Part shown: positions 32,069 to 50,040 of the stretch, one piece after another
Numbering within the stretch: the stretch's first letter is position 1
How the letters are laid out: each line of letters starts with the position of its first letter
DNA from: Salipiger pallidus
Lineage (GTDB): Bacteria; Pseudomonadota; Alphaproteobacteria; Rhodobacterales; Rhodobacteraceae
NCBI RefSeq assembly: GCF_014643635.1
Contig: NZ_BMJV01000001.1
Location: forward strand, 620,001-684,000
Length of the DNA stretch: 64,000 nt
Direction of reading: 5' to 3'
Program-made: the position numbers and the translations under genes
Notes under the pieces: model-generated
What the model was told of the DNA's origin: nothing
What the model saw: only the letters and a program-made list of their open reading frames with translations
The model's database searches: none

Positions 32069-32145
32069 GCCGCCTTAGCTCAGTAGGTTAGAGCGCTTGA
32101 TTGTGGATCAAGAGGTCTCCCGTTCGAACCGGGAAGGCGGTACCA
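32069..32145 (+). tRNA. tRNA-His (anticodon GTG), integration site of the element
   Basis: Acceptor GCCGCCT/AGGCGGT, anticodon arm CTTGATTGTGGATCAAG (anticodon GTG), T-arm TCCCG TTCGAAC CGGGA, discriminator A and encoded CCA. The G at 32069 forms the mature 5' end region. Its last 47 bases form part of the 49-bp attL repeat, so the tRNA is left intact after integration. Confidence 0.96.
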
Positions 32146-32147
32146 TT
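32099..32147 (+). other. attL core (49 bp, 3' half of tRNA-His)
   Basis: Bases 32099-32147 are identical to 49992-50040. The repeat runs from the anticodon loop through the CCA end of tRNA-His plus two bases. It marks the left edge of a 17.9-kb element. Confidence 0.95.
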
Positions 32148-32200
32148 AAAACAATGGCTTAGCCAAATCTTCTGTATATTTTGGAACCTGTTCAGAGATC

Positions 32201-32219
32201 GGGGTAACGCTCGGGTAAC
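32201..32219 (+). other. putative integrase arm-type sites, left end
   Basis: GGGGTAAC (32201-32208) and CGGGTAAC (32212-32219). The same two octamers, in the other order, occur at 49842 and 49854 near attR. Paired repeats flanking both att cores fit arm-type binding sites of a tyrosine recombinase. The remaining ~180 bp to 32399 hold no gene I can see. Confidence 0.6.
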
Positions 32220-32399
32220 GTTTTCACTCCGCTTCCTAAGCCGTATGGCAACTCGGTTCGCTCGGTCTAAGTGCTCGTGAGGTTACCGAATCGACGTTTT
32301 GATCTCGTCGCGAATAGGCCGGGGATCAGTAGTTATCGGCGATGTGGGCCAGATGATGTCTAAGCGGCGGTCGTAGGTCGGGTCGAAGCCGGACCAGCT

Positions 32400-32732
32400 T
32401 CAGTTAGCCACCCGCACCTGCATCAGTTCTATGAGCCGGTCGAAGCGCGCACCGTCGTCATCGACCACAAGATCAGCCATCGCATGCAGCCAAGGCTCCC
32501 GTTCCTCAGCCGGAATACAGCGGAGCATCTTCTGGAGCGTCTCATCATCCGGCACCTTCACACCGGTGCCGGGAGCCGCTGGCATATTCGAGAGGTCCTG
32601 AATGCTCTTGTACACGCTGTGCTGATTGAGCTCGAGCAGGTCGAGAGCCAGCACGAGTAGCGACAGCGTGCTAGGCGGCATTCCTTCAGTCAGGAAACGT
32701 ATTTTTGCAGTGGCTCGGATACGTTCAGACAT
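32400..32732 (-). CDS. hypothetical cargo protein of the element
   Basis: 110 residues (MSERIRATAKIRFLTEGMPP ...), mostly helical, Leu-rich in the first half (STLSLLVLALDLLELNQ), without signal peptide or recognised motif. The ATG at 32732 has AAGGGA eight bases upstream. It lies between the left att site and the rest of the cargo, on the same strand as the structural operon but 1.9 kb past its end. I do not recognise it. Confidence 0.6.
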   Translation of the reverse strand: MSERIRATAKIRFLTEGMPPSTLSLLVLALDLLELNQHSVYKSIQDLSNMPAAPGTGVKVPDDETLQKMLRCIPAEEREPWLHAMADLVVDDDGARFDRLIELMQVRVAN

Positions 32733-32938
32733 GGGCAAATCCCTTACACGACTGCAGGCAGGTTATCGGATAAGGTCAAGATCCCCTAAACGCTTATAGC
32801 GATATCGGGGCGGCGTCCCACATTACGGCCGCGCCACAGACAAGCCAAACCTCAATGATGGCAGCCCCGCACTTCGCCTTTGCGTGGCGTGGCTGATGGA
32901 GTTTCGTCAGACCACATTTTCATACGCGGGAAATCCAT

Positions 32939-33253
32939 GTGAGTAGTGGTATCACATGGAGACAAATTGCACTGCAAATCGAAGGCGAGGAGCAACCCTT
33001 CTGGGTCATTCAGGACACAGCAGTTACGCTGCCCGGCGATAATGTCAGTCTCGAAAACGCCAACGGCTCCATCAGGCTGTTCACCGCAAAATCTTGCACA
33101 TGGGCGACAGCAAAGCAAGGCCAGCACAGCTTTGGACAGGTCCAGCTGACGTTTGAGGAAAGAAAGTCAGCCGATGGATGGGTGCGCCCGATCTGGTTTG
33201 CCTGCACTGGCGACGATGGGTACCTTGGGGGAGGGTCACTCTTCCTGAAGTAG
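32939..33253 (+). CDS. hypothetical cargo protein (uncertain)
   Basis: A 104-residue frame starting with GTG (MSSGITWRQIALQIEGEEQP ...), beta-strand-like, ending in GYLGGGSLFLK. The ribosome site is poor and the opposite strand also has an open frame, so coding is only probable. No family recognised. Confidence 0.4.
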   Translation: MSSGITWRQIALQIEGEEQPFWVIQDTAVTLPGDNVSLENANGSIRLFTAKSCTWATAKQGQHSFGQVQLTFEERKSADGWVRPIWFACTGDDGYLGGGSLFLK

Positions 33254-33473
33254 CTGAGAGTCCGGGAACGGGTTTTATGTGCCGCACCCTAATGTTGCCT
33301 AAATTCACCTCAGGGCTGTAATTTTGAAAAAGTTGGGCGCTGGGTGTGAAAACGCCCCCCAAAAAGTAGGCTTATATTAGTGAGGGCGGTCGCACGACCT
33401 GAACCGCTCTCACAAGCCAACTCCCGCCCGCGGCAAAAGCCGCAGGCTTCTAGCATTCAAAGGAAGATATTTT

Positions 33474-34033: not shown

Positions 34034-34450
34034 ATGCAACGTTTCATGGCGATAAAATTTCATCCCGGCCAAGGCGCTGTAGTTCGTTGCGATTACACCA
34101 AGGGAGGCTTCCAGCCTCCGGAGATGGTCAAAATTCGGCCCGCTGTCGTTCTGTGCCAGCGACCAAGATTCCGAAAAGGCCTGCTCACTATCGTACCTCT
34201 CAGCACGAGCGCCCCTGCCCCCCAGATGAACTATCACTGCAAGGTTCATGTCGGGGGGCTTCCGGGTTTTCCCATGCCGGAATGCTGGGTTAAGGCGGAT
34301 ATGATCGCCACGGTTTCCTTTGAACGTGTTGATCTGTTCCGCCTGTCCAGAGACCGACAAACCGGAAGGCGAACATATCTAGAGAAGTTCCTCTCCACGC
34401 ATGACTTTGAGAAAGTTCAAGCATGTGTTCGGGCCGCGCTTAACCTTTAA
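34034..34450 (+). CDS. PemK/MazF-like type II toxin, unpaired
   Basis: A 138-residue protein with the PemK-like pattern: FHPGQGAVVRCDYTKGGFQPP, the family core KIRPAVVLCQRPRFRKGLLTIVPLSTSAP, and WVKADMIATVSFERVDLFRL. MazF/PemK proteins are mRNA interferases and may be toxic unless held by an antitoxin. I find no credible antitoxin gene immediately up- or downstream. The start could be 34034 or the internal ATG at 34046; neither has a strong ribosome site. It could also be a degenerate, inactive family member. Confidence 0.7.
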   Translation: MQRFMAIKFHPGQGAVVRCDYTKGGFQPPEMVKIRPAVVLCQRPRFRKGLLTIVPLSTSAPAPQMNYHCKVHVGGLPGFPMPECWVKADMIATVSFERVDLFRLSRDRQTGRRTYLEKFLSTHDFEKVQACVRAALNL

Positions 34451-34629: not shown

Positions 34630-34980
34630 TCATCCCATCGACAGATCGAACATGGCCGGGGTCAGCGCGTGTTCCGACCGCTGCGGCAAGGTCTTCGTTC
34701 CTGCCGGCACAGCGCTCTTGGCATAGGCCCGGTCGATCCACATCGCGTCCATGGCCCTGATGGCTTCGACGTGGTGCGGCTCAAGTGGCAGTCGCATCAG
34801 GCGGCAATAGGCTTCGATCTCGGGAAAGCTGATCGGGTTCGGCCCCACCGGCCCGCAGGATCGGGCGCGAGACAGATCACCGAAGGCCCGCCAGAGCGTC
34901 CCGCCACCCTCGGGCGGGACAGAGCGCCCGCCGTCGAGATGCCTTTCCAGCGCCCCAACAAGCTGGCGTTGGAGCCTCAT
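34630..34980 (-). CDS. phage protein, possible tail assembly chaperone
   Basis: 116 residues. The central block ISFPEIEAYCRLMRLPLEPH followed by HVEAIRAMDAMWI resembles small proteins found next to tail genes in siphoviruses that are often called tail assembly chaperones (pattern: Trp/Glu-Ile-Glu-Ala-X-X-Arg-Leu ... Ala-Ile-X-X-Met-Asp). The ATG overlaps the stop of the preceding gene (ATGA). It is the last gene of the structural operon; no tail-tip gene follows. Confidence 0.5.
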   Translation of the reverse strand: MRLQRQLVGALERHLDGGRSVPPEGGGTLWRAFGDLSRARSCGPVGPNPISFPEIEAYCRLMRLPLEPHHVEAIRAMDAMWIDRAYAKSAVPAGTKTLPQRSEHALTPAMFDLSMG

Positions 34981-35333
34981 GGCAGGATCTCCAAGGTTCC
35001 CGACACTTCGAAGCGGTTGGACGACAAAGCCCGGATCTCGTAGCTGCCCACGAAGCGCAGGCTCTCTTCCTTCTGGGTGTCCGGCACCACGGCAGTGAAG
35101 GACAGAGCGCCCATCCCGATCTCTTGCGCGAAGAACGCCTCGAAGGCGCTCACTTGGTTGCGGGTCAGGGGCGGTGTCACGCCGCGCACGTTCTGTACCA
35201 CTGCAGATGTGCGCCGCCGGACCTTGGCCGGGCCTTTGCTCATCTGGGTGCGGATCACAGCCCCCTGCGGGCCACTGCGGGTGAAGCCGGAGGCCTCGGT
35301 GAAAAATGGTACGTTGGTGGGCCATGCTGGCAT
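34977..35333 (-). CDS. minor tail protein, lambda gpM-like position
   Basis: 118 residues (MPAWPTNVPFFTEASGFTRS ...). The pattern GPAKVRRRTSAVV and FEAFFAQEIGMGALSFTAVVP followed by a beta-rich end matches small tail proteins that come directly after the tape measure gene in many siphoviruses. The ATG is inside the end of the tape measure gene region (1-bp gap) with AAAGGA upstream. It probably joins the tail tube to the tip; function by position. Confidence 0.6.
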   Translation of the reverse strand: MPAWPTNVPFFTEASGFTRSGPQGAVIRTQMSKGPAKVRRRTSAVVQNVRGVTPPLTRNQVSAFEAFFAQEIGMGALSFTAVVPDTQKEESLRFVGSYEIRALSSNRFEVSGTLEILP

Positions 35334-35334: not shown

Positions 35335-37935
35335 TCAGGATCCTTTCGGGAGAGGGCGGCCGCCGTAGCGACGACGCATTGCGCCGTCCATGCTGCCACT
35401 GGAGAGTTCGTCGCGCAGAACCTTGCGGATCATGCGGATATCCATGGTGCCATTGGGCTGGCGGGTGACTTCTGCGGTTTCGCCTGGAAGCGGGGCGACA
35501 TTCACCGGGATGTTCACCACGGGCGCGGCCACCTCGATCTTGGATTGACCGGCGGACGCACCCCGGAGCGCGGCTTGCGCCTGCGGCACGTTCAGGATTG
35601 CGCCAGACTGCGAAGAGGTGAAGACCTCGGCGCGGCTGGTGCGCTCATTGGTCAGGTAAGATTTACCGGACATGACAGAGCCGCCATTCGCCCGCGCGCC
35701 CTCGATGCGCGGCATCACCGGCTCGGAAGACGCTGCGGCCATCTTGCGCAAAGACCGCGGCAACGGCGTGCCGCCCCTCTTACCCCGCCCGCCCAGCACG
35801 GCCTCGCGCAAGGCGGCCTGCGCCTGCGGCACGTTGAGGATCGCGCCAGATTGCGAAGGCACGAAGATCTCCGAATTCGCGGTGCGCTCGTTGACCAGGT
35901 AGGGCTCGCCCACCTTCACCGGCCCGCCCTCTGCCCGCTTGCCGGATAGGGCGCTGCCTATCGCTTCAAAGATGCTCCCGACCGTGCCGCCGGATTTCGC
36001 GAGGTCGAGGAACGCCGCCTCGATCTGCACCTGAATGAGCTGCTGCACGAGGCTCCACAAAGCCTGCTCGGCGGAACTCGAGCCATCGAGGACGGACATG
36101 AACAGGTCCGACATGCTTTGCGCCCCGCGCTCGGTGTTCTCGCGCACCTTGTCCATCTTGTCGGCAGCATCGTCCGCCGCCTGCCCGGCCTTAGCATAGG
36201 CCTGCGCCAGCTGGTCGATCTCGGCCCGCATCTCGGGGGTGAGTTCCTTGCCCGCTGCCTGCGCCTCGTACAGCAGTTCGGCCTTCTTGCGGGCGTAGTC
36301 CACGGCATCGCCATACTCGAACCCCGTCTCGGCCACCGCCGCCAGGGCAACGGCTTCGGCTTCAAGCCGTGCGATCTCTTCGCGGGTGCGCTCCACCTCG
36401 CGGCGGAAATCATCCACCTCGGCACGGGCACGGCCACCCCCACCACCGCCGGAAGACCCACCACCACCGCCGCCGGCCGAAGGCTCAGGCCTGCCGAAGC
36501 TGAAGTTCACCCCAGGCATCTGCGGGCGCACCGAAGACCGGGGCGCGGTCTCAGTCGGGGGCAGCTGGAAATCAACCTCCCCCTCGGGTGCCGGGGTGGT
36601 CCCAACCTCATTGCCCGGAAGGCTGTTGCGGAGCTGCGTGGCGCGGGTGGCGGTTTCAATGAGCGCCCGCGCGAGGCCGCCCAGCTGAGCGATCACATTC
36701 GAGAAGGTCGCCCCGTCAATCGCGTCGATCTGCGCCAGCGCGTCGTTGGCGCTGGTGATCGCGTCCTGCATGCCGCTGTCGAAGTCCTCAGCGCTGATCG
36801 TGCCATCCTTCAGGCCGTCATCCAGTTCGGCCATCTGGTCGCGCACGGCCCGCAAGGTGTCTGCGGCGTCCGAATAGCCCAGGGCGCTCAGGGAAATGAT
36901 GGTCTGATCCAGAGACGGGAACAAGCGCACGGCCTCGTCCCCAAGGCGGGCATACTCATCGCGGAGCATCCGGAGGGTGTCCATCTGCTCCTCGGCTTCC
37001 TCTTCGGTCGCCTTGCTCTTCCCCTCCATGGCATCGCGATAGGCCTTCTCGCCCATCATCGCGATCGCGCGTTCGGCAGATCCGAAGATGTCGTCAACGT
37101 CGATCGTCAGCGCCTCATCCAGCGCCCCGGCCAGATCCACCACGATGGTCTTGGCGAGCGTCGAGATGCGCCCCGTGATCTCCCCGAACTTGCGGTCGAG
37201 TTCCGCCGCCTTGGCAATGGTGTCCTCTTCGATCACAAGGCCCAGCTCGTGCGCCCGGTCCATCATCTGGCGGATGCCATCGTCCCCCTGCCGCAGCAGT
37301 TCAACGAAGCGCTCCCCACCCGTGCCGCCGAACACCTCGTCGGCAACGCGGATCTGCGCCGCGCGGTCGAGGTCTTCCATGCGGTCGATCAGGTCGAGGA
37401 ACAGTTCTTCCGGCTCTTCCAGCCGCCGCTTGAGGTCTTCAGCGCTATACCCGAGCCTGCGGAACGCCTCTTCCCCGGAGCCCTTGCCGGTCACGATGAA
37501 CTCGTCGGCCCGAAGCTGAAGCTCTTTCAGGCCATCGACCATCGCATCCACGTCGATGCGGCTTTGCTCGGACACGAACTTGAGTTCCTGGAACGCGGTC
37601 ACGCTCAGGCCAGCCCGGTCTGCCTGCTGCTGGATCTCGGACAAGGCGCGCACGGCCTGCGTTGCCCCGGTGGTGATCGCCCCGATACCGGCCACCACTG
37701 CCCCCGCCACGAACGCCTTGCCGAACGCCCCGATGCGGGTGCTTGTGGTCGCGAGCGCCTGGTTGATGCGGCTCGTGGACCGGAGCATGTCCGCCTCCAT
37801 CGCCGTGGTGGCGGTACGCGATCCGGTACGCAGCCGGTTGTAAGACTGCGTACCGCGTTGCTCGGCCTTGAGCATGTTCTTCTCGAAATCCCGGATGCGG
37901 GCTTCCAGCGCCACGATAAGGCGTTCTTCGTCCAT
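35335..37935 (-). CDS. phage tail tape measure protein
   Basis: 866 residues, close to lambda gpH in length (853). N-terminal coiled coil (EARIRDFEKNMLKAEQRG), a hydrophobic patch (FVAGAVVAGIGAITTGATQAV), long helical stretches, a Gly/Ser linker near residue 500, and a C-terminal part in which a ~42-residue module (GGPVKVGEPYLVNERT ... ILNVPQAQAALR) occurs twice, at about 670-711 and 751-792. It sets tail length during assembly and is ejected with DNA. Start ATG at 37935 with GGAGG upstream, 11 bp after the large terminase stop. Confidence 0.88.
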   Translation of the reverse strand: MDEERLIVALEARIRDFEKNMLKAEQRGTQSYNRLRTGSRTATTAMEADMLRSTSRINQALATTSTRIGAFGKAFVAGAVVAGIGAITTGATQAVRALSEIQQQADRAGLSVTAFQELKFVSEQSRIDVDAMVDGLKELQLRADEFIVTGKGSGEEAFRRLGYSAEDLKRRLEEPEELFLDLIDRMEDLDRAAQIRVADEVFGGTGGERFVELLRQGDDGIRQMMDRAHELGLVIEEDTIAKAAELDRKFGEITGRISTLAKTIVVDLAGALDEALTIDVDDIFGSAERAIAMMGEKAYRDAMEGKSKATEEEAEEQMDTLRMLRDEYARLGDEAVRLFPSLDQTIISLSALGYSDAADTLRAVRDQMAELDDGLKDGTISAEDFDSGMQDAITSANDALAQIDAIDGATFSNVIAQLGGLARALIETATRATQLRNSLPGNEVGTTPAPEGEVDFQLPPTETAPRSSVRPQMPGVNFSFGRPEPSAGGGGGGSSGGGGGGRARAEVDDFRREVERTREEIARLEAEAVALAAVAETGFEYGDAVDYARKKAELLYEAQAAGKELTPEMRAEIDQLAQAYAKAGQAADDAADKMDKVRENTERGAQSMSDLFMSVLDGSSSAEQALWSLVQQLIQVQIEAAFLDLAKSGGTVGSIFEAIGSALSGKRAEGGPVKVGEPYLVNERTANSEIFVPSQSGAILNVPQAQAALREAVLGGRGKRGGTPLPRSLRKMAAASSEPVMPRIEGARANGGSVMSGKSYLTNERTSRAEVFTSSQSGAILNVPQAQAALRGASAGQSKIEVAAPVVNIPVNVAPLPGETAEVTRQPNGTMDIRMIRKVLRDELSSGSMDGAMRRRYGGRPLPKGS

Positions 37936-37946: not shown

Positions 37947-39545
37947 CTATGCCGTCCACATGTCATCGGTGAACCAGTCCGCCGATGTGGTCATTGCGCC
38001 CTCGTCTGCGGCGCAGCGAGCCACGGCCATGGCAGACGCAACCGCGCCGTCGATCTTGTCCTTGCTCTTGCCCTTGTGGAATGAGCGGTTCCCGGAGCTG
38101 TCGGTCTTCACCTCGATGTTGGCGAAGTTCCAGCGCAGCACCGGGTGGCCGCCGTGCCGGAACCGTCGCCCGATAATTGCGCGCTCCAGCTCCTTTACCG
38201 CCGGGGCCATCGTCACCCAGCCCTGCCGGAACTCCACCGCCGGGAAACCATCCTCCAGCAGGTCGTTCAGCATGTTCCGGGCAAGGTGTGGGTCGAAGGC
38301 GATTTCCTGCACGTTGAAGCGGGCGCAAAGCTCGCGCACCCCGTCCTCCACTGCCCGGAAGTCCACCACGTTGCCCTCGGTCGCGGTAATCAGCCCGTCA
38401 TCGGCCCATGTGGTATAGGGCACCCCGCTCAGGTCTTCCCGCGCCCGCAGGTTGTCGGATGGGCAGAAGAAGAACGGCACCACCTGGAAGCCGTCCTCCC
38501 CGTCACGCCAGCACGCCACAATGACGGTCAGGTCCGAGTTCGAAGACAGGTCCACCCCGAGCCAGCACGGCGCTTGGCGGGCTTCGAGGTCTTCCAGATC
38601 GACCGGCCCCGCGCCATCGTCATAGATGTGCATGTCCACGAAGGGATCGGTGGCGTGGTCCAGCCATATGTTGAGGTTCAGCTGGCGGAACGCTTCCCGG
38701 TCCCCGATGCGGCGCGAGCCTTCCCGCGCAAGCTGGCGCAAACCCTCAATATCCGGGTAGCCGTGGCGCAGGCCGGGGTTTACCCGGAACCAGACCTCCT
38801 CATTCTGCCAGTCGCAATCCCGGTCGGCCTCGAAGAGCACCGGAAGGATGGACGGGTCATCCACTTCCCCCCGCGCCACCTTGCGGGCATCGTCCACGAT
38901 ATCCCAGGCGATGTTTTCCTGCCCGCGCCCGGCGGTGGTCGCCACCACCAGCAATGAGCCGCGTGTCTTCACCAACCCGGAGCGCAGCACGTCCCAAAGC
39001 TCGCGCTTCTTCCAGGCATGAAGTTCGTCTGCCAGGACAAAGACCGGCGTGCGCCCGTGCTGGGTTCCGGCATCGGCGCTGATCGCCTCGCAAAAGCTGC
39101 GGAGCCTAGGATAGGTGATGCGGTTGCGGTAGTCGAGAAACCGGACGTGCGGCGCGATCTTGGGATGCGCCCCCATCAGCCCCCGCAGTTCCTCATAAGC
39201 GATGCGCGCCTGCTTGCGATCCGAGGCCGATGTGATGACCTCCCCGCCCGGCACCGCTTCCGGCCCGATGGTGTGAAGCGCTTCCAGAGCGGCGGACAGC
39301 GAGGTCTTGCGATTCCCGCGCGGCACGAGGATTACCACCGTCTTCACGATGCGGCTGCCGTCCTCATGGCGTGGCCCGTAGATGCGGCGCACAATGCGTT
39401 CCTGCCAAGGGTCGAGCTGGAAGGCCTTCCCGGACTTCGGGTGGCGCAGCATCCGGAGGAACTTGACCGCCCGTTCGCCAAACCCTTGAGGGTCCGGGAT
39501 CTCGGAGCCATCGTATATCCAGTCAGGATAGGTTGAGCGGGTCAT
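37947..39545 (-). CDS. phage terminase large subunit
   Basis: A 532-residue packaging ATPase/nuclease. The ATPase domain shows the Walker-A-like VPRGNRKTS (about residue 74) and Walker B VFVLADELHAW, with coupling motif LLVVATTAGRGQ. The C-terminal RNase-H-type nuclease has WLGVDLSSNSDLTVI (first Asp pair) and DGAVASAMAVARC near the end. It cuts concatemers and drives DNA into the prohead. I choose the ATG at 39545 with GGAGG at proper spacing. It overlaps the end of the small subunit gene. Confidence 0.92.
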   Translation of the reverse strand: MTRSTYPDWIYDGSEIPDPQGFGERAVKFLRMLRHPKSGKAFQLDPWQERIVRRIYGPRHEDGSRIVKTVVILVPRGNRKTSLSAALEALHTIGPEAVPGGEVITSASDRKQARIAYEELRGLMGAHPKIAPHVRFLDYRNRITYPRLRSFCEAISADAGTQHGRTPVFVLADELHAWKKRELWDVLRSGLVKTRGSLLVVATTAGRGQENIAWDIVDDARKVARGEVDDPSILPVLFEADRDCDWQNEEVWFRVNPGLRHGYPDIEGLRQLAREGSRRIGDREAFRQLNLNIWLDHATDPFVDMHIYDDGAGPVDLEDLEARQAPCWLGVDLSSNSDLTVIVACWRDGEDGFQVVPFFFCPSDNLRAREDLSGVPYTTWADDGLITATEGNVVDFRAVEDGVRELCARFNVQEIAFDPHLARNMLNDLLEDGFPAVEFRQGWVTMAPAVKELERAIIGRRFRHGGHPVLRWNFANIEVKTDSSGNRSFHKGKSKDKIDGAVASAMAVARCAADEGAMTTSADWFTDDMWTA

Positions 39546-39927
39546 CACCATCCTCCGGGTCATCATTGCGGATTGCGGGCCGTGACCGAGAAACCGGGGT
39601 CAGCCCCAGCTCAGCGGCCAGCAGGCGGGCGCGGGTCATGGCGTCGGACTGGATGCCCACCGCCGGATTGCGCTTCATGCCGCCCTCAAGGTCGGTGAGG
39701 ATGTGCCCGTGTTCCTGGAGATGCGCTTCCATGTCGCGCACGGTGCCGATGGCGATGCAGTAGTTCTCCAGCTGCCCGAGGTCCGCATCGGTCAGGATGC
39801 GGCGTTCGGTCAGGATCGGCATGACCCGCTCCCATTCAGCCCGTGCATGCCCGGAAAGCCAGACGGGCGCGGCCAGATCGCTCAGCGCGTCGGGATCGGC
39901 CTGCATCTGCGGTTTCGTACCCCTCAT
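39523..39927 (-). CDS. phage terminase small subunit, P27 family
   Basis: 134 residues with the P27-type core: DLAAPVWLSGHARAEWERVM, TDADLGQLENYCIAIGTVRD and ARLLAAELGLTPVSRSR. It recognises the packaging start site and hands DNA to the large subunit. It overlaps its neighbours on both sides (ATGA with the upstream head-closure gene; 23 bp into the large subunit). The terminase pair lies after the connector genes, not at the head of the operon. Confidence 0.85.
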   Translation of the reverse strand: MRGTKPQMQADPDALSDLAAPVWLSGHARAEWERVMPILTERRILTDADLGQLENYCIAIGTVRDMEAHLQEHGHILTDLEGGMKRNPAVGIQSDAMTRARLLAAELGLTPVSRSRPAIRNDDPEDGDDPLNLS

Positions 39928-41064: not shown

Positions 41065-41375
41065 CAGAACGTGAACTCCCGGTATTCGGTGACGATCTCG
41101 CGCACCCCGAAGGGAAGCTCGCGCACCGCCTCGGCACCGGCCTCGCGGTTGTCGTACCAGTGGGCTGCAAGCTGAAGCACAGCCTCCACCAGTGCCGGCG
41201 GCACCTCGTCTTGCCCCTCGCCCCCGAAGGTGGCCTCGATGCGGAACCCCAGCAGCCGCTCAACATGGTTCTGCGCGGCGTCGAGCTTCCGTTGCAAAAG
41301 GCCATCGTCCGCGTCCCCGATGTCGTCGGTGAACGCGAGCTGATCCTTCAGATTGTCGAGGGTCGCGACGGCCAT
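41064..41375 (-). CDS. phage head-tail connector protein, gp6-like
   Basis: 103 residues, helical: LDNLKDQLAFTDDIGDADDG and LQRKLDAAQNHVERLLGF followed by PPALVEAVLQLAAHWYDNRE are the hallmark of the gp6/gp15-type connector that binds below the portal. It shares a base with the next gene. Confidence 0.87.
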   Translation of the reverse strand: MAVATLDNLKDQLAFTDDIGDADDGLLQRKLDAAQNHVERLLGFRIEATFGGEGQDEVPPALVEAVLQLAAHWYDNREAGAEAVRELPFGVREIVTEYREFTF

Positions 41376-43375: not shown

Positions 43376-43884
43376 CAGGAATCCTTTCGTGCGAGCTGCG
43401 CCGCAGCGCGTTGCAATTGTTCGGCGAGGCTGAGGGCCTGCACCGCTGTCTTGGCTGAAGTCACCCGCGCGCCGGGGTGCATCGGGATCGTCACGAGGCT
43501 CGCTTCCAGAAGCTCAAGCTCGGAGACCGTCCGGCCACCGCGCGGGCGAGGTGCCGCCTTCTTCGTGCGGAAGCCGATGGAAATGCCGCGCACGGCCCCG
43601 GAGCGCACCAGTGCGCGCACCTCACGCGCCCGCGTTACGTCATCCACCAGCAGCCGCCCCTTGAGATACAGGCCCTCGTCGCGGTCCTGCCCGATGGTCC
43701 AGGAACCCACCGGGTCGTTCTGGTCGTGGCCGAAGAGCATCGGCAGCGGGAACGACGCCCCCGTGAATGCGCCCTTGGTGATCATGTCCCCGATGCGGTC
43801 GGCCTCGGCATACTTCCACGCCAGACCCTCAACCGTGCCATCATCGAAGGCGGCGATCTTGGTTTCGAGATAGACGCGCTCCAT
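43375..43884 (-). CDS. phage prohead protease, HK97 family
   Basis: 169 residues. GLAWKYAEADRIGDMITKGA and PMLFGHDQNDPVGSW (catalytic His), RALVRSGAVRGISIGFRTKK with the catalytic Ser, and ELELLEASLVTIPMHPGA are the herpesvirus/HK97 assemblin-type signatures. It trims the capsid scaffold domain. The ATG at 43884 (MERVYLETK) is chosen over an extension that overlaps the upstream gene. Confidence 0.92.
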   Translation of the reverse strand: MERVYLETKIAAFDDGTVEGLAWKYAEADRIGDMITKGAFTGASFPLPMLFGHDQNDPVGSWTIGQDRDEGLYLKGRLLVDDVTRAREVRALVRSGAVRGISIGFRTKKAAPRPRGGRTVSELELLEASLVTIPMHPGARVTSAKTAVQALSLAEQLQRAAAQLARKDS

Positions 43885-44273
43885 CAGCCAGCCCTCCGGA
43901 ACGCCGCGCGGTCGGACGCAAAGGCGTCGATCTGCGCCTGCACCCATGTCGCGGACTTGAGCAGGCGCACGATGTTGGCATGGCTGAAGGGCACCGGCTG
44001 GCCGTCCTCGTTGATCTCCCAGGCGAGGACGCAGGACGCGAGGCTGTCGAGGCGGGCACGTTCGCGCGCTTCCGCCGATACCTTGCCTTCTGCATCGGCC
44101 ACATCGGACAGGTCGTCGGAGAGGCGCAGGCGGGCGCGGTTCTGCACCTCGCTGTCCGGTCCCGCGACCTTGAGGCGGATGCCCGTGGCCTGATGCGTCA
44201 CCGGGTCGAGAAGCTCGAACCAGACGCCCCGGTCCTGATCGGCAGAGAATGCGCGGATGTCGTTAAGCTGCAT
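43884..44273 (-). CDS. phage protein of unknown function between portal and protease
   Basis: 129 residues (MQLNDIRAFSADQDRGVWFE ...). It has a beta-rich front half (WFELLDPVTHQATGIRLKVA) and a helical back half (LKSATWVQAQIDAFASDRAA). It overlaps the portal stop by 11 bp and the protease start. The shape recalls small phage proteins that act in tail or head assembly, but I do not recognise it. Confidence 0.6.
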   Translation of the reverse strand: MQLNDIRAFSADQDRGVWFELLDPVTHQATGIRLKVAGPDSEVQNRARLRLSDDLSDVADAEGKVSAEARERARLDSLASCVLAWEINEDGQPVPFSHANIVRLLKSATWVQAQIDAFASDRAAFRRAG

Positions 44274-45510
44274 CGGGGTTTTCCTCATCCGGGGTCTCCT
44301 CAACATTGAGGGCACCCTCTTCGCCATCGACGGACGCAGAATTGCGCGCGTCGGGCGTGGTGATGTTGGGGTTTGCGAACTCATCGCCGCCCGCGTAGGG
44401 GGTCAGGCCCAGCCAAGCGCGGCCCTCGTTCGGGTTGATGACGCGCGAGGCCACCAGCGAGTTGATGACGGTCGAGCGGGTCGAAAGGTCAGCGCGGGTC
44501 AGGTCGTCACGGTCGAAGCGGATGGCATGGGTGGCCCGCTCTTCCGGGGTGAACAGGGCGCGGCGCAGTGCGCCCTCCACCGCCCGCAACCACGCTTCCA
44601 ATGTGTAGCTCAAAAATTCCCGGCCCTGCTGCTCGCCGTTGCTCCACGTCGCCCGCTCAAGGTCGTAGAGCATCGGAGGTGGCACCCGAAACGCGCGGGC
44701 AACCTCAAGGATCTGGAACTTCCGGTTTTCGAGGAACTGGCTGTCGGTCGAGCTGAAGGTGAAGGGCGTGAATTCTGCACCGTCGAACAGGATAGCCGTC
44801 TGCCCGGAGGCGTCCTCGCCCTCGTGGGTCGCCCGCCACGCGGCGCGGGCCTTCTTCACGCTCTCCTCACCCATGCCCTTGGGGAAGCTCAGGGCACCGG
44901 AAGGACGGGCACCACGCCCAAACAGCTTGGCCGCGTGCCTGTCCAGCGCCATGGCTACCCCGATGGCCTCCCGCGCCAGAGACAGCGGCGCACGTCCGAA
45001 GGGGCTGCGAAGGTGGACGACGTCCGAGGCAGGCACCGCGCGACCATTGATCTTGTAGCGCGGCTCGCCCGTCACCGTGTCGAACTGCACGTCGATCATG
45101 CCCTGGCGGTAGCGGATGATCTCGGCAACACGGCCATCCCCCACCCGGTTGACGTAGGCCATGCCGCCCCGGTCATCGGACAGCGCGTCGATCACCAGAT
45201 CACGAATGAACGAAAACGCGTCTGTCCAGTCGTTCGCTTGATCGCGCAAGAGGGGCAAAACGGGGTGGTCCGGCGTGGCGATCTCGGTGCCGTCCGCCTG
45301 AATGCGCTTCACGCCGATGTCGAGCGTTGCGACAGCCTCGGAGATAACGCGGATCGCGGACCCCACCGCAGGCACCCGCAGCGCCACCTCTGCCGTGACG
45401 GGCGTTCCGGTGGCGGAAGAGGGCACCAGCCCGAAGAGGGAATAGAGATCATCGCTCGGCTCAGCGAGCGACTTCTCTTCGACCGGCGGTTTGCGTCTGA
45501 ACAGCTTCAT
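44263..45510 (-). CDS. HK97-family phage portal protein
   Basis: 415 residues. VPAVGSAIRVISEAVATLDI, HLRSPFGRAPLSLAREAI, a clip/stem region and QFLENRKFQILEVARAFRVP with LERATWSNGEQQGREFLSYT match the HK97 portal. It forms the dodecameric ring through which DNA is packed. First gene of the structural operon, 175 bp after the stop of the nearest upstream gene, so a late promoter probably lies in that gap. Confidence 0.93.
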   Translation of the reverse strand: MKLFRRKPPVEEKSLAEPSDDLYSLFGLVPSSATGTPVTAEVALRVPAVGSAIRVISEAVATLDIGVKRIQADGTEIATPDHPVLPLLRDQANDWTDAFSFIRDLVIDALSDDRGGMAYVNRVGDGRVAEIIRYRQGMIDVQFDTVTGEPRYKINGRAVPASDVVHLRSPFGRAPLSLAREAIGVAMALDRHAAKLFGRGARPSGALSFPKGMGEESVKKARAAWRATHEGEDASGQTAILFDGAEFTPFTFSSTDSQFLENRKFQILEVARAFRVPPPMLYDLERATWSNGEQQGREFLSYTLEAWLRAVEGALRRALFTPEERATHAIRFDRDDLTRADLSTRSTVINSLVASRVINPNEGRAWLGLTPYAGGDEFANPNITTPDARNSASVDGEEGALNVEETPDEENPDAA

Positions 45511-46468: not shown

Positions 46469-46687
46469 TCACTTCCTCCGGAGCCAATGGTTCAGTTCAG
46501 ACCGAAGCGCGAAGTAGCTCACACCATCAGGTCGATAGATCGGACAGTCGTGGAGCTTAGCCAGACGTCGTGCTTTGTCGGTGCTCACTCCGAGAGCGCC
46601 TGCGATTGCAGCGAGCCCCCAGATCTTTTCAGGGCCGGTGGTGATCGCATCGAAACGCCAGCGGTCGAGGGGTGGTCTCTCTCTCAT
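46469..46687 (-). CDS. small helix-turn-helix protein (MerR/excisionase-like)
   Basis: 72 residues (MRERPPLDRWRFDAITTGPE ...). IWGLAAIAGALGVSTDKARR is a clear helix-turn-helix, followed by a short wing (LHDCPIYRPDGVSYFALRSE) as in MerR-type or excisionase proteins. The ATG overlaps the upstream stop (ATGA). It may act in excision or early control. Confidence 0.65.
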   Translation of the reverse strand: MRERPPLDRWRFDAITTGPEKIWGLAAIAGALGVSTDKARRLAKLHDCPIYRPDGVSYFALRSELNHWLRRK

Positions 46688-46899
46688 TGCACCGCCCACA
46701 TACGGCTACGCTCGATCGGGACGGTCTCTTGTCCGTCGATGACCGACCGCGCATTTCGGTACGTCTGCGCCGCGTTTTCCGTCCCAAATTCGGGCTGGGG
46801 TATATGGTAGATTAAGGATGTCACGATTCTTAGGACGTCCGATGGCTGCAAAAGGCGCAAAACGGCACAGTATTTGTGACAGGCTGTCCTAAATTTCAT
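46684..46899 (-). CDS. hypothetical protein overlapping iterated sites (uncertain)
   Basis: A 71-residue frame (MKFRTACHKYCAVLRLLQPS ...) linked at both ends by ATGA overlaps to its neighbours, which favours coding. However, it runs over two of four repeated 17-bp sites and has no recognised motif, so it may be a by-product of a regulatory region. Confidence 0.4.
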   Translation of the reverse strand: MKFRTACHKYCAVLRLLQPSDVLRIVTSLIYHIPQPEFGTENAAQTYRNARSVIDGQETVPIERSRMWAVQ

Positions 46900-46957
46900 G
46901 ACGTCCTACCGTTCGACGTCACGAAATTTAGGACGTTCCTGTCCCGATTTTCATGAC
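46820..46957. promoter_or_regulatory. four alternating 17-bp iterated sites (GTCAYGAWWHTHRGGAC)
   Basis: Copies at 46820-46836 (+), 46886-46902 (-), 46918-46934 (+) and 46941-46957 (-). The middle two match at 16 of 17 positions and with their flanks form 20-bp inverted arms. The array covers the 3' end of the winged-helix gene and its junction with the next frame. It is a candidate operator or replication origin for that protein. Confidence 0.65.
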
Positions 46958-47411
46958 GGGGTTTTTCTTTCCCATTCCGACCTCTCGGATTATTCGAGCT
47001 GGTCCCTTTGACCGGGAAGTCCGCGCCCTGTGTCCAGTTCTTGTAAAGACGTCTGCCGCTGGTGGCGGTAGGCAATGCGATCTCTGTCAGCTCGAAGCTC
47101 GGGGACTTGGCATTACCGGAGCTCCCGAGTTGGGCGGGTTTGGTCACAACGATAAAACCCTTCGCCTGTAGATCATGAAAAGCGCCGGCTGCCGTGTTGC
47201 GGTTAACGCCCAGACAATCCGCCGCTTGCCGGGTCGAGAGCTGGATATCACCGTTGTTGTTTGCATTACCGCCATGCCACTCCAACAAGAGCCACGGGTA
47301 GAGCGCTTGAGCCACAGGACGCAGGGCACGCCATGCGGGCTCTTGCATGATGTGGCGCTTGAGCTGAGCGAAGTGCTCGCGCCTCTTCTCGTTTTTCTTG
47401 TCCCGCCCCAT
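46896..47411 (-). CDS. winged-helix DNA-binding protein, possible replication or regulatory factor
   Basis: 171 residues. MQEPAWRALRPVAQALYPWL and GDIQLSTRQAADCLGVNRNT followed by AAGAFHDLQAKGFIVV form the wHTH domain seen in many small alphaproteobacterial phage, plasmid and island proteins, often thought to be replication initiators or regulators. The C-terminus is basic and poorly structured, and its last 20 codons are made of the iterated sites. Coupled to genes on both sides by ATGA. Confidence 0.65.
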   Translation of the reverse strand: MGRDKKNEKRREHFAQLKRHIMQEPAWRALRPVAQALYPWLLLEWHGGNANNNGDIQLSTRQAADCLGVNRNTAAGAFHDLQAKGFIVVTKPAQLGSSGNAKSPSFELTEIALPTATSGRRLYKNWTQGADFPVKGTSSNNPRGRNGKEKPRHENRDRNVLNFVTSNGRTS

Positions 47412-47683
47412 CAGCTCTCCTCCACATCCTCGAGTTCGACTGCGGCACGGTCCAGTGCATTGCGGAATGTCCGCAGCTCAAGCATCAGCTGCCGCGCTAA
47501 GCGCTCGCCCATTTCCTCAAGAGGCCAGCCGTCGATCGTGATTTCGACCAGTCCCGAGAAGCGGAGGTCCGCGGCAAACGCCGCGGCTCCACCGTCCCGA
47601 AATGCTCGTTCAAGGGCTGCTTCGACGAGCTTGAGGCGGACATCGATCCGCCCCAGCGCATCTTTTTGATCAGAAGGAAGCAT
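47411..47683 (-). CDS. hypothetical helical protein
   Basis: 90 residues (MLPSDQKDALGRIDVRLKLV ...), predicted mostly helical and acidic, without known motif. The ATG shares a base with the AlpA stop (TAATG). It is part of the early operon. Confidence 0.6.
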   Translation of the reverse strand: MLPSDQKDALGRIDVRLKLVEAALERAFRDGGAAAFAADLRFSGLVEITIDGWPLEEMGERLARQLMLELRTFRNALDRAAVELEDVEES

Positions 47684-47949
47684 TACTCTCCCCTCAGTCG
47701 CTGTTGGGCGCGTTCATCGATCCAGGTCCTGATTTCAACTTCTCGCCAATAGCGGTTCCGGGAAAGAACAATCGGCTTCGGGAATTTCATCTCGGGATCA
47801 GCCAACCACCGGTCGATCGAGGACGCCGAGACGTCTAGAAGTTTGGTAACTTTCGCCGTCGACATCAGCTTGTGCGGGTCGACCGGATCGCGAAACATGC
47901 GCTGGACAGCGTCCGATATCGAGAGCGTATGAGGTTCATTCAGGTTCAT
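47683..47949 (-). CDS. AlpA-family transcriptional regulator / excisionase
   Basis: 88 residues. KLMSTAKVTKLLDVSASSID plus RWLADPEMKFPKPIVLSRNR and YWREVEIRTWIDERAQQR match the AlpA/MerR-like fold (helix-turn-helix then the F-P-x-P wing and W-x-x-x-E-I-x-x-W). AlpA proteins activate integrase or excision genes in P4-type satellites and prophages. It starts the leftward operon; inverted repeats at 47951-48011 just upstream may be its own operators. Confidence 0.85.
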   Translation of the reverse strand: MNLNEPHTLSISDAVQRMFRDPVDPHKLMSTAKVTKLLDVSASSIDRWLADPEMKFPKPIVLSRNRYWREVEIRTWIDERAQQRLRGE

Positions 47950-47950
47950 C

Positions 47951-48054
47951 AGCCACGTCTCCTATGATTTAGAACGTGGCTCATCTATTGGTCACAGATG
48001 CGCGTATCTGTCCAAAGGACTTTACTGCGGGTATTTCAGTTCATTTTCCCGCAG
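47951..48054. promoter_or_regulatory. inverted repeats between alpA and the 172-residue gene
   Basis: Three inverted repeats in 104 bp: AGCCACGT/ACGTGGCT (47951-47981), ACAGAT/ATCTGT (47994-48011) and CTGCGGG/CCCGCAG (48025-48054). The first two are candidate operators for the alpA operon; the last is next to the stop of the upstream gene and could act as its terminator. Confidence 0.5.
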
Positions 48055-48573
48055 TCATCTGAAATGTTTGTCAAATTCCGCACGATCTTGCGCCCGAAAA
48101 TGTGCCAGAACAGTCGCGCTCGCACGGCCTTTCAGTAGATCGTAGCCGCTCAATCTATACCTGATGCTTTCGAGGAATTTTGCACGGTTCAAGCGTTCCT
48201 CGATGGTTCGCTCTTTGCGACCCACGCGCTCTTCTAGGTATCCTAGAGCTTGCTGACGCGTCATCTCGTCGACGTTCGTGAGCCAGTAGAATTCCACAGC
48301 AATCAGTTTTGTTATCTCTATGGCTGGTGGTCTGCCCTTCGAAGGCTTCATCCCGCCTTCAAGGAGTTCGACGAGGAAGCCGCGCTCACCATCGTTCAGA
48401 GGTTTATTGCGCAACAGGAGCGTTTTCAGCTCCTCATAGTCGCCCTCCCGAGCCGCGATTTCTGCGGACTGCCTATGCTTTGCAACCAGCACTTCGATAG
48501 CGTCCATGTCGTTCCGACAGACTGCATCCATGAAGGCAGGGTAATCGGGATCATCTCTGAAATCTGGGATCAT
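48055..48573 (-). CDS. hypothetical protein coupled to the integrase
   Basis: 172 residues (MIPDFRDDPDYPAFMDAVCR ...), helical; the middle (LLRNKPLNDGERGFLVELLE and GGMKPSKGRPPAIEITK) and a C-terminal DRAEFDKHFR show no motif I know. ATGA overlap with the integrase suggests a role in integration or its control. Confidence 0.65.
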   Translation of the reverse strand: MIPDFRDDPDYPAFMDAVCRNDMDAIEVLVAKHRQSAEIAAREGDYEELKTLLLRNKPLNDGERGFLVELLEGGMKPSKGRPPAIEITKLIAVEFYWLTNVDEMTRQQALGYLEERVGRKERTIEERLNRAKFLESIRYRLSGYDLLKGRASATVLAHFRAQDRAEFDKHFR

Positions 48574-49826
48574 TGGCGTGCTCCGATATGCACGACATTG
48601 GACGCCGCCTTGCTCTCCACCAGATCCAGCACGAACCGCGCCCAGGCCTCCAGCGCCCGCCGCTTCTCTTCGCCGTAGTCGTGTCTCTGATAGATCCCAA
48701 CGAGGCCCCCACCTGTGCCGGACGTATGATTCAGCACAGCCTCAGTGACCCGCACCGGAACGCCAAGCCTCGCCATTCCGGTCGCCGCCGTGCGCCGCAG
48801 ATCGTGAAACGTCCATCGGGGGATTTCGAAAGGTTCGCCTGCCTCCCCGGTCGCGATCGCGGCCATCCGCTCAATGAGGCGGGCGTGACCCTTCGTGTAG
48901 CCCGAAACAGGACTCGTCCCGGTCGTGGTGAACAGGTAGCCTGGCGCACTTGGGACCCGCGCGACGCTCGCCAGAACGCCGTGGACCTCCGACGAGATCG
49001 GGACCCCGTGAGCCTTGCCATTCTTGGTGCGGCTGGCCGGTAGGTGCCACGCGTCGCCCGAGATCTCTGTGTTCGTCATCTCGGCCACCTCGCGAAGCCT
49101 CTGCCCGGTGAGCAGCAAGATCTTGGCGAGCGGCCCCCACGGTTGCCCGATGTCGTCACAGGCTTGCCACAGCCATCGAATTTCATCGTCGCTGAGAACG
49201 CGATCACGGCTAATCTCCTTCGCAATCGCCTTGACGCCCGTGACCGGCGAAAGGTCGATCACATCGCGAGCCACGCACCAGTTCATGAACCCGCTCAGAT
49301 AAGTCCGGAGACGGTTGGCACTCACAACACGTCCGGTGTCTGCGATCTCGTCCAGAAGGTCGATCACGTCGCGCTTGGCGATGTCATGAATGTCACGATC
49401 CCCCCATCGGCTGACCACATGCCGCTCAAGCTCACGCCGTGGGGTAGCGCCAGACTTGAGGTTCGCAAGGTAGCGATCACTGTAGAGCCGAAAGAGCGTC
49501 TTAACCTTATCGCGGTCTGAGAGCTGTGCTTCGAGGGTCTTCGCCTTTGCCGCTTGCTTTGCCGCGCTAGGGTCCCTTCCCGCCTCCAGCTCCTCCAGCG
49601 CCTCAGTTGCAGCTGCGCGCGCCGCGGCCAGCCCTAGAATAGGCCATCGACCGAGAGTTAGTTTCCGCGGCCTACCTGCGAAGCGATACCGCAGTGCCCA
49701 GCTCTTGGCGCCGCTTGGTTGTACCACGACATAAAGGCCCGAGAGTGCCGGATCGGGTATCTCTCGACGCCGCTCAGGATCTGGCCTCAGGGCTTCGACA
49801 GTCTTGGTTGTGAGAGCTCGCGCCAT
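48570..49826 (-). CDS. int: tyrosine recombinase / integrase, P4 type
   Basis: 418 residues. The N-terminal DUF4102 arm-binding domain (ALTTKTVEALRPDPERR ... KSWALRYRFAGRPRKLTLGR) is followed by a core-binding domain and the catalytic domain with TGQRLREVAEM (Arg I), WTFHDLRRTAATGMARLG (His-X-X-Arg), LNHTSG and GIYQRHDY (nucleophile Tyr). All catalytic residues are present. It sits 165 bp from attR and recombines at the tRNA-His 3' end. Start ATG at 49826; ribosome site weak. Confidence 0.95.
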   Translation of the reverse strand: MARALTTKTVEALRPDPERRREIPDPALSGLYVVVQPSGAKSWALRYRFAGRPRKLTLGRWPILGLAAARAAATEALEELEAGRDPSAAKQAAKAKTLEAQLSDRDKVKTLFRLYSDRYLANLKSGATPRRELERHVVSRWGDRDIHDIAKRDVIDLLDEIADTGRVVSANRLRTYLSGFMNWCVARDVIDLSPVTGVKAIAKEISRDRVLSDDEIRWLWQACDDIGQPWGPLAKILLLTGQRLREVAEMTNTEISGDAWHLPASRTKNGKAHGVPISSEVHGVLASVARVPSAPGYLFTTTGTSPVSGYTKGHARLIERMAAIATGEAGEPFEIPRWTFHDLRRTAATGMARLGVPVRVTEAVLNHTSGTGGGLVGIYQRHDYGEEKRRALEAWARFVLDLVESKAASNVVHIGARQ

Positions 49827-49841
49827 GATCAAAGGGTCTCC

Positions 49842-49861
49842 CGGGTAACATCTGGGGTAAC
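49842..49861 (-). other. putative integrase arm-type sites, right end
   Basis: CGGGTAAC (49842-49849) and GGGGTAAC (49854-49861), matching the two octamers at 32201-32219 beside attL, just upstream of the integrase start. Confidence 0.6.
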
Positions 49862-49991
49862 AAAGGCAGTGAATTCAGATGCCGCCAGATGATGCGCAAC
49901 GTTGCCAATTAAGAAAGTAAGGTCAACAAATATTGGAGAATTCGCGAGCTAGGTGACGTCGGATGAGCCTAGGAGAGAACCCATCTGGATA

Positions 49992-50040
49992 GATTGTGGA
50001 TCAAGAGGTCTCCCGTTCGAACCGGGAAGGCGGTACCATT
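49992..50040 (+). other. attR core (49-bp copy of the tRNA-His 3' end)
   Basis: Identical over 49 bases to 32099-32147. It lacks the D-arm and 5' acceptor strand, so it is not a working tRNA. It marks the right edge of the element. The ~90 bp between it and the chemoreceptor start hold nothing I recognise. Confidence 0.95.

What the first reader, a model, noticed from the sequence alone, without database searches (positions are those of the whole stretch)
32099..50040. 17.9-kb element encoding its own capsid and packaging genes but no tail tip, lysis or replication enzymes
Bounded by 49-bp att repeats in tRNA-His. It has an integrase, AlpA, a wHTH protein with iterons and a full head set, plus tail tube, tape measure and two minor tail proteins. 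Nothing resembling tail-tip hub, receptor-binding, holin/endolysin, helicase, primase or polymerase genes is seen. This is close in plan to capsid-forming phage satellites (int and AlpA at one end, own packaging module, missing late functions), yet it keeps a tape measure, which those lack. It may be a satellite that takes tail tips and lysis from a helper phage, or a trimmed prophage.
Basis: partly seen in the sequence, partly recalled or inferred. Interest (0 to 1): 0.8.

Follow-up and report, generated by a model that had tools for sequence, protein, structure and literature searches.

The report
Satellite that borrows phage tail tips
This 17.9-kb element looks like a phage parasite that builds its own head and tail tube but not the tail tip, and the end of its tail-ruler protein closely resembles that of two larger prophages in the same genome, as if made to fit their tail tips.

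Summary
Between 49-bp repeats in tRNA-His lie integrase, AlpA, a head and packaging set, and a proximal tail: terminator, tube, tape measure, two chaperones and a gpM-like distal ring. No hub, NlpC, fibre or lysis gene was found. A trimmed prophage is unlikely. Of 160 related loci fetched, 122 have TerL just before the tape measure and no NlpC, hub, DUF2163 or DUF1833 gene in the next eight genes; where the portal is visible (92) it comes first. Two of the 122 carry another tip plus lysozyme; nine carry a gpI-like tip protein. Satellite and phage portals are split by one well-supported branch. The main clue: the tape-measure body is 60% identical to that of another satellite (G047), but its last 61 residues are 72-74% identical to two larger prophages in this genome. 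That end and the ring are the only element proteins matching them. Satellites with similar bodies often have unrelated ends (16 of 30 pairs); in phages the end follows the ring/tip type (12 of 12 pairs, few independent). Best reading: a helper-dependent satellite that makes head plus tail tube and docks on a helper's tip through an exchangeable tape-measure end. Dependence, particles and docking are inferred.

The parts
32099..32147 (+). left attachment repeat (49 bp exact), 3' part of tRNA-His
   Evidence: tRNA
49992..50040 (+). right attachment repeat (49 bp)
48570..49826 (-). tyrosine integrase
   Evidence: PF00589, PF13356; phrog_1
48055..48573 (-). 172-aa protein, no family match
47683..47949 (-). 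AlpA-like excisionase/regulator
   Evidence: PF05930 above cut-off
47411..47683 (-). 90-aa protein, unknown
46896..47411 (-). winged-helix protein, candidate replication initiator (weak)
   Evidence: phrog_8064 2.4e-5, phrog_186 3.2e-4
46817..46959 (.). four imperfect 20-22-nt repeats (iteron-like)
46469..46699 (-). 76-aa HTH protein, in many relatives close to the portal
   Evidence: weak PF12728; cluster of 46
44263..45510 (-). portal
   Evidence: PF04860
43884..44273 (-). tail assembly chaperone 1
   Evidence: phrog_313
43375..43884 (-). prohead protease
   Evidence: PF04586
42227..43366 (-). major capsid protein, HK97 family
   Evidence: PF05065
41862..42227 (-). HNH endonuclease
   Evidence: PF01844
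41379..41858 (-). major tail (tube) protein
   Evidence: phrog_158 1.7e-18
41064..41375 (-). head-tail adaptor
   Evidence: PF05135, phrog_40
40654..41064 (-). HK97 gp10-like, tail completion/neck
   Evidence: PF04883, phrog_5
40238..40654 (-). tail terminator
   Evidence: PF11367, phrog_176
39924..40226 (-). head closure/completion protein
   Evidence: PF05521, phrog_25
39523..39906 (-). terminase small subunit
   Evidence: PF05119
37947..39551 (-). terminase large subunit
   Evidence: PF20441, PF03354
35335..37935 (-). tape measure protein, 866 aa; body like other satellites
   Evidence: phrog_10574 2.5e-151 over 1-714
35338..35520 (-). last 61 residues of the tape measure: helper-type end, proposed tip-docking segment
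   Evidence: 72-74% identical to the resident prophages' tape measures; the last 76 residues match in 2 of 394 family genomes
34977..35333 (-). distal ring protein, gpM-like
   Evidence: 51-53% to rings of the two prophages; phrog_384; Foldseek top hit lambda tail tip 8iyk_E, weak
34630..34980 (-). tail assembly chaperone 2
   Evidence: PF23812 Phage_TAC_18 1.3e-11
34034..34450 (+). PemK/MazF-like toxin, possible cargo
   Evidence: PF02452

Best explanation
The element is an integrative, helper-dependent phage satellite. It makes its own head, packages its own DNA and builds its own tail tube, but stops at the joint to the tail tip. Shown from sequence: the gene set, its conservation as a separate lineage, dN/dS below 1 in close relatives, the lack of hub, NlpC and lysis genes, and the chimeric tape measure. 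Inferred: on induction or superinfection the tape measure binds the helper's tip initiator with its last ~60 residues, together with the element's own gpM-like ring (in some relatives also with an own gpI-like plug). The satellite's tube then polymerises on the helper's tip to the satellite's shorter ruler length, the satellite's terminator and head join it, and the helper lyses the cell. The tape-measure end and ring act as an exchangeable adaptor: by recombination with a new helper's tape-measure end the satellite changes helper. For this copy the likeliest helpers are the two similar prophages in the same genome (G000 C1 near 217.7 kb, C5 near 367.1 kb).
For: (1) 122 of 160 census loci have TerL within three genes before the tape measure and no NlpC, hub, DUF2163 or DUF1833 in the next eight genes; 26 are phages, 10 other, 2 without readable tape measure; no locus had both marks. 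Portal precedes MCP and TerL in 92 of 92 satellites that show it; TerL precedes portal in 17 of 17 phages showing both. (2) Satellite and phage portals are separated by one change, support 99 (73 vs 16 rows). (3) Tape-measure body ~22% but last 61 residues 72-74% identical to the resident prophages; this end and the ring (53-58%) are the only hits of 27 element proteins in 60 kb around each. (4) The end matches in 2 of 394 family genomes (own; one weak) and 3 of 20 genus genomes. (5) Ends of other satellites match other phages: the G031 end hits 10 Rhizobium phage records at 66-71%, the G046 end Rhizobium phage 16-3. (6) 16 of 30 satellite pairs with bodies at least 70% identical have unrelated ends. 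(7) In phages end similarity follows ring/tip genes in 12 of 12 pairs. Ring and end class agree in 14 of 14 classifiable satellites (18 carry a ring). (8) A gpI-like tip protein occurs in 9 of 122 satellites and G031; the 8 distinct ones and G031 have ends like RHEph10, whose gpI they match. (9) TP901-1: last 60 TMP residues essential (passages). Lambda: TMP end lies in the tip, gpM joins tube and tip, gpI supports the TMP coil (passages). (10) Both prophages carry ring, DUF1833-like, NlpC-like and 2287/2380-aa tip proteins.
Against: No induction, particle or transfer data exist. In the other genomes tested no resident prophage matched: ends of G047, G046 and G031 and the ring of G026_C1, searched in seven genomes; ends of G025, G026 and G091 copies were not searched singly. 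So the resident match is one case; helpers may come from outside. 31 of 100 typed satellite ends fit none of the three phage classes. Two of 122 relatives (L120, L126) carry a compact tip and lysozyme; L142 has an NlpC-like gene 16 genes before the tape measure, and L191 a hub-like gene on the other strand at its contig edge. End exchange is not peculiar to satellites: 5 of 8 phage pairs with bodies at least 70% identical differ there too. The 12 phage pairs rest on few phages (the 5 unlike pairs on four). Integrase, and in some pairs TerS, MCP, protease or chaperone 2, are exchanged as well. The gpM likeness of the ring rests on a low-confidence model (pLDDT 61, Foldseek E 0.066). Ring/end agreement is partly confounded by clade, and two of the 14 scores are borderline (E 0.004 and 0.01). 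43 of the 122 loci have under 4 kb after the tape measure.
Confidence: 0.75

Rival explanations
1. A cryptic prophage that lost tip, lysis and replication genes and is decaying.
For: It lacks those modules; one relative (G031) has what looks like a transposase gene inside TerL.
Against: The same boundary and non-canonical order recur in 122 of 160 loci on one side of a single portal-tree branch; the element's structural frames are open; dN/dS is below 1 in relatives (the window's own copy was not tested). In 30 of 44 satellite loci scanned a tRNA lies 1.3-6.1 kb past the tape measure, the likely element end, leaving little room for a lost module.
Confidence: 0.06
2. A small autonomous temperate siphophage whose tip and lysis are done by unrecognised small proteins of the element, as L120/L126 do with a compact tip.
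For: L120/L126 show that the backbone can carry two tip proteins and a lysozyme.
Against: No open frame over 231 aa lies wholly past the tape measure in the element; the two genes that follow it are a ring and a chaperone. In the next four genes, 118 of 122 relatives have no same-strand protein of 400 aa or more; two have one that looks like a host gene (by eye) and two are L120/L126. The tape-measure end matches other phages' ends.
Confidence: 0.08
3. A satellite of the ordinary capsid-forming kind that takes whole helper tails, with tube and tape measure genes as unused passengers.
For: Head and packaging set and HNH match the published cf-PICI description (passages).
Against: Terminator, tube or tape-measure genes recur across the relatives with dN/dS below 1, and tape-measure ends agree with the ring type.
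Confidence: 0.07
4. The satellite uses the tip of a resident gene transfer agent rather than of a phage.
For: One class of satellite ends matches phages with DUF2460-DUF2163-NlpC-hub tips, the tip plan recalled for RcGTA.
Against: The window's copy belongs to another class, matched by prophages. GTA tape measures were not compared.
Confidence: 0.03

Closest known systems
[quoted passage not shown]
   Same: Own capsid, protease, portal, connectors, HNH, TerS and TerL, and dependence on a helper (definition from passages of PMC10690885); integrase plus AlpA and small size (recalled).
   Different: cf-PICIs depend on helpers for whole tails. This family also encodes tail terminator, tube, tail chaperones, tape measure and often the distal ring. 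Phylogenetic relation to published cf-PICIs was not tested.
Complete lambda-like and RcGTA-like siphophages of Alphaproteobacteria (G000 prophages, Rhizobium phage RHEph10, Rhodovulum phage vB_RhkS_P1)
   Same: Homologous head and proximal-tail proteins in some; same ring and tape-measure ends.
   Different: Those phages that show both genes have TerL before portal, and they carry tip modules.
Streptomyces satellites MulchRoom/MiniFlayer
   Same: Own capsid and packaging genes, helper-dependent (passages).
   Different: No tail-component homologues reported for the Mulch satellite (the passage names MulchMansion); MiniFlayer has a tail-fibre gene; the text never mentions a tape measure.
cf-PISP satellite-plasmids of Vibrio
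   Same: Own head and packaging genes (passages).
   Different: Reported to lack tail genes and to be plasmids.
Small siphophage-like relatives L120/L126
   Same: Same backbone order.
   Different: They carry their own compact tip and lysozyme between tape measure and chaperone 2.

Membership tests
cf-PICI | integrase and AlpA-type regulator (recalled feature) | tested here: met
cf-PICI | own MCP, protease, portal, connectors, TerS, TerL, HNH | tested here: met
cf-PICI | depends on helper for the whole tail, no own tail genes | tested here: not met
   tube, terminator, tape measure, chaperones, ring present
cf-PICI | capsid phylogeny within published cf-PICI clades | not tested
   no cf-PICI sequences at hand; primary papers not held
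cf-PICI | induced and transferred by a helper phage | not testable with these tools
   needs induction experiment
complete temperate siphophage | tail tip (ring, NlpC, hub) and lysis genes | tested here: not met
   of these only the ring was found
gene transfer agent | no integrase or att sites (recalled feature) | tested here: not met
   integrase and 49-bp att present
defective prophage remnant | broken frames or one-off loss | tested here: not met
   open structural frames; plan recurs in 122 of 160 loci

The most novel reading that the evidence does not exclude
A large family of satellites (this window's kind, in Rhodobacterales and Hyphomicrobiales) has moved the border between satellite and helper from the neck of the particle to the tail tip. 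They build head and tail tube themselves and take only the tip. Their helper range is set by a ~60-residue exchangeable docking code at the end of the tape measure, with the parts that touch it (gpM-like ring, in some also a gpI-like plug), picked up from each new helper, including lambda-type phages of 115-122 kb and resident prophages.
Probability: 0.6. Interest if true: 0.9.

Novelty: new variant of a known kind. Interest (0 to 1): 0.8.

Why it matters
Known capsid-forming satellites take whole tails. A satellite that owns the tail tube and borrows only the tip would show where tail assembly can be split between two genomes. It would make the role of the tape-measure C-terminus in tip recognition directly testable, and it could allow helper prediction from sequence by matching the last ~60 residues. 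It also suggests that many 13-20-kb 'incomplete prophages' of Alphaproteobacteria are conserved satellites rather than decay.

Tried and rejected
Trimmed prophage: rejected. Resident-helper pairing as a general rule: not found, and the G047 end matched no phage record. End exchange as a satellite-only trait: rejected, phages do it too. 'No tip gene at all' as a family rule: rejected on re-check, because the first screen looked only downstream and only for four gene types; a gpI-like protein lies upstream in 9 of 122 (8 distinct) satellites and in G031. No satellite protein hit the RHEph10 gpL, gpK, gpJ or vB_RhkS_P1 DUF1833, NlpC or hub proteins directly. Empty attachment site in the genus: the right flank matched only the own genome, 1 of 20, so it could not be shown. 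TerL as a marker of isolated relatives: 1,788 phage records match, all under 60% identity; the 25 rows listed were 35-37%. A QAQAALR-like linker as a general exchange seam: only 16 of 100 satellites and 12 of 26 phages have it near the end (the pattern was faulty). L189 was dropped from pair counts because its end looks frameshifted (kept: 212 of 328 pairs at 50% or more; dropped: 200 of 316). Before typing of ends, loci with under 60 bases after the tape measure were left out (number not printed) and identical tape measures were merged, 151 to 126 rows. The ten pairs compared gene by gene were picked for having unrelated ends. The census is the best 80 of 193 and the best 80 of 435 loci; several viral-contig loci are the same elements as genome-contig loci. 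One home-made gene-caller run was wrong on a relative and was redone with the window-trained model.
Full report
WHAT IS THERE. The window is G000:C1:620001-684000. A complete tRNA-His lies at 32069-32145. Its 3' part is repeated exactly over 49 bp at 32099-32147 and 49992-50040. Between the copies, on the minus strand, are integrase, a 172-aa protein, AlpA, a 90-aa protein, a winged-helix protein, an HTH protein, two small ORFs, portal, tail chaperone, protease, capsid, HNH, tube protein, adaptor, gp10-like, tail terminator, head closure, TerS, TerL, tape measure, ring protein and a second tail chaperone. Then come a few small ORFs, including a PemK-like toxin on the plus strand. The winged-helix protein weakly resembles replication initiation proteins and lies beside four imperfect repeats. 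Among the genes searched no hub, NlpC, fibre, holin, endolysin, helicase, primase or polymerase gene was seen; several small genes have no family match.

IT IS A CONSERVED FAMILY. The tape measure was first searched in 198 family genomes: 17 had a match, the own genome included. Reading neighbourhoods showed two kinds. One kind shares the window's order and stops after the tape measure or a gene or two later (G047, G046, G025, two in G026, G031, two contig-end copies in G091). The other kind is prophages with DUF2460/DUF2163/NlpC/hub-type genes after the tape measure. A profile of seven satellite tape measures then gave the best 80 of 193 loci from genome contigs and the best 80 of 435 from viral contigs. 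Genes were called and clustered with scripts. Of the 160 loci, 122 have TerL within three genes upstream of the tape measure and none of NlpC, hub, DUF2163 or DUF1833 in the next eight genes; 26 are phages with such genes; 10 are other; 2 have no readable tape measure; no locus has both marks. 79 of the 122 have at least 4 kb of sequence after the tape measure. The portal is visible upstream in 92 of the 122, and in all 92 the order is portal, capsid, TerL. In the phages that show both genes TerL precedes the portal, 17 of 17. The 63 satellite loci from genome contigs cover 34 named genera, in Rhodobacterales and Hyphomicrobiales, with 9 loci lacking a genus; one locus (L088) is in a MAG labelled Cytophagaceae, perhaps a binning error.

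The satellites form two arrangements. Clade A (73 loci, the window's) has the chaperones of the window; clade B (36 loci) has integrase beside the portal where visible; 13 could not be assigned. In a FastTree of 89 portals, 73 satellite and 16 phage rows are separated by one change, support 99, with warnings about long phage branches. In 30 of 44 satellite loci scanned, a minus-strand tRNA lies 1.3-6.1 kb past the tape measure; ten isotypes occur, none is tRNA-His. That is where the elements probably end, though att repeats were not sought there. Four close satellite pairs, one of them L120/L126, show dN/dS between 0 and 0.67 in every gene for which a ratio could be formed.

EXCEPTIONS. L120 and L126, nearly identical to each other, keep the order but carry a 271-aa F5/8-type-C protein, a 587-aa protein, a phage lysozyme and two small genes between tape measure and chaperone 2. 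They look like small autonomous phages. In the portal tree rooted on the phages they nest inside clade A, so the tip was probably gained there. A re-check of whole loci found a homologue of RHEph10 gpI (38-45% identity; phrog_32 tail assembly protein in three tested) in the head region of 9 of 122 satellites (8 distinct) and of G031, an NlpC-like gene 16 genes before the tape measure in L142, and a hub-like gene on the opposite strand at the contig edge of L191. No satellite protein hit the gpL, gpK, gpJ of RHEph10 or the DUF1833, NlpC and hub proteins of vB_RhkS_P1.

THE CHIMERIC TAPE MEASURE. All 27 element proteins were compared by tblastn with 60 kb around each of the two other tape measures in the same genome. 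Only the tape-measure C-terminus (61-76 residues, 66-72% identity) and the ring protein (53% and 58%) matched at E below 1e-3. Those two prophages have 96% identical tape measures. Both carry ring, DUF1833-like, NlpC-like and very large (2287 and 2380 aa) tip proteins and similar head genes; DUF1833, NlpC and an amidase were confirmed by Pfam in C1 only. Their ends and integrases were not examined. By contrast the element's tape-measure body is 60% identical to the satellite of G047 (residues 1-704) and about 22% to the prophages. The last 76 residues matched 2 of 394 family genomes: the own genome, and one weak match in the same genus. They matched 3 of 20 genomes of the genus, one of them a phage with the same ring and tip class (G394). 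A same-genus satellite with a 66% identical body (G402; its contig has the length of the Salipiger mucosus contig of L074) has an unrelated end.

OTHER HELPERS. The 60-residue end of the G031 satellite, shared at 53-67% by four other satellite tape measures, matches ten Rhizobium phage records of 115-122 kb (one phage is listed twice) at 66-71% identity. In the four of these read, the match runs to the end of the tape measure and is followed by genes of lambda M-L-K-I-J type, so named in RHph_X66. The G046 end matches Rhizobium phage 16-3 (68% over 41 residues). The G026_C1 ring matches Paracoccus phage Pkon1 (51%). The G047 end matched nothing. Searched in seven genomes, the ends of G047, G031 and G046 and the ring of G026_C1 hit no resident prophage.

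EXCHANGE. No similarity here means no blastp match of 30 residues or more at E below 1e-4 in the last 65 residues. Among satellites, 16 of 30 pairs with bodies at least 70% identical have none. In ten pairs picked for this, the body is 69-89% identical and the end 17-28%, while most neighbouring genes are 50-97%; integrase (20-25%) and in some pairs TerS, MCP, protease, c11 or chaperone 2 are below 50% too. In six pairs cut into 60-residue steps the fall comes at the end of the protein. Phages give the rule: of 12 pairs with bodies at least 50% identical, all 7 with the same ring/tip genes keep the end, and all 5 with different ring or tip genes have a different end; these 5 pairs involve only four phages. 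Of 100 typed satellite ends, 40 fit a model of the lambda-type phage ends, 24 the DUF2460/DUF2163 type, 5 the type of the resident prophages, and 31 none. Of 18 satellites with a recognised ring gene, 14 have a classifiable end and in all 14 the class agrees with the ring; 4 are unclassified. The gpI-bearing satellites all have lambda-type ends. So the end goes with the parts that touch it, and satellites exchange it although they have no hub of their own.

MECHANISM. In TP901-1 the last 60 residues of the tape measure are essential, loss of the last 30 leaves only heads, and the end is proposed to bind the Dit-Tal initiator (passages of PMC5099701). In lambda the tape-measure C-terminus lies in the tip, the gpM ring joins tube and tip, and a gpI trimer supports the tape-measure coil (passages of PMC10721106). 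The element's ring protein gives a low-confidence model (pLDDT 61) whose best Foldseek match is a 109-residue lambda tail-tip chain, 8iyk_E, E 0.066; gpM has 109 residues. The simplest reading is that the satellite supplies everything down to the ring and the helper supplies the rest of the tip and lysis. The tail length follows the satellite's own ruler, so the prediction is ~107 nm against ~172 nm.

KNOWN OR NEW. By the published description, cf-PICIs make heads and depend on helpers for tails (passages of PMC10690885). This family meets the head and packaging features but not the tail feature, so it is not filed as a cf-PICI; it works like one with the border moved to the tip. Eight literature searches for such satellites (listings and abstract starts only) and passages of four papers showed no satellite with its own tape measure. 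The two primary satellite papers asked for are not held, so earlier mention there cannot be excluded.

LIMITS. Everything is from sequence. Dependence, particle formation, induction and docking are inferred. The census covers the best-scoring loci only and was selected by tape-measure similarity. Gene calls are from a home-made caller trained on the window.

Noticed in passing
window 34034-34450 (+): PemK/MazF-like toxin gene between the tail module and the att site; no antitoxin was looked for. Possible stabilisation module or cargo.
   Followed up: no
L120:12166-16478 and L126:12166-16437: Two nearly identical relatives from different records carry a compact tip (F5/8 type C protein plus 587-aa protein), lysozyme and two small genes: possibly a minimal autonomous siphophage nested in the satellite clade.
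   Followed up: partly
L048:6723-7406, L140:4561-5283, L151:4117-4794 and 7 more loci: Clade B satellites with a lambda gpI-like tip protein placed in the head module, near capsid and HNH, far from the tape measure.
   Followed up: partly
window 35570-35628 and 35813-35871: A 59-nt repeat (85%) inside the tape measure duplicates a segment just before the helper-type end; may mark the recombination joint.
   Followed up: partly
G000 C1 near 217.7 kb (L033) and C5 near 367.1 kb (L036): Two prophages with 96% identical tape measures in one genome, both with the ring class of the satellite.
   Followed up: partly
L048:13238-16027 (G031): What looks like a transposase gene splits the terminase large subunit of one relative, so that copy is probably broken.
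   Followed up: no
L040:5769-7646 (G046): A 625-aa protein that looks like a primase/helicase (by eye) in one relative, unlike the window's small winged-helix protein.
   Followed up: no
L088: A satellite of this family sits in a MAG labelled Cytophagaceae, perhaps a binning error.
   Followed up: no
satellite loci with DUF2460-type rings (for example L076, L078, L100, L144): Their ring class resembles the RcGTA tip plan (recalled); whether such satellites could use a GTA tip was not tested.
   Followed up: no
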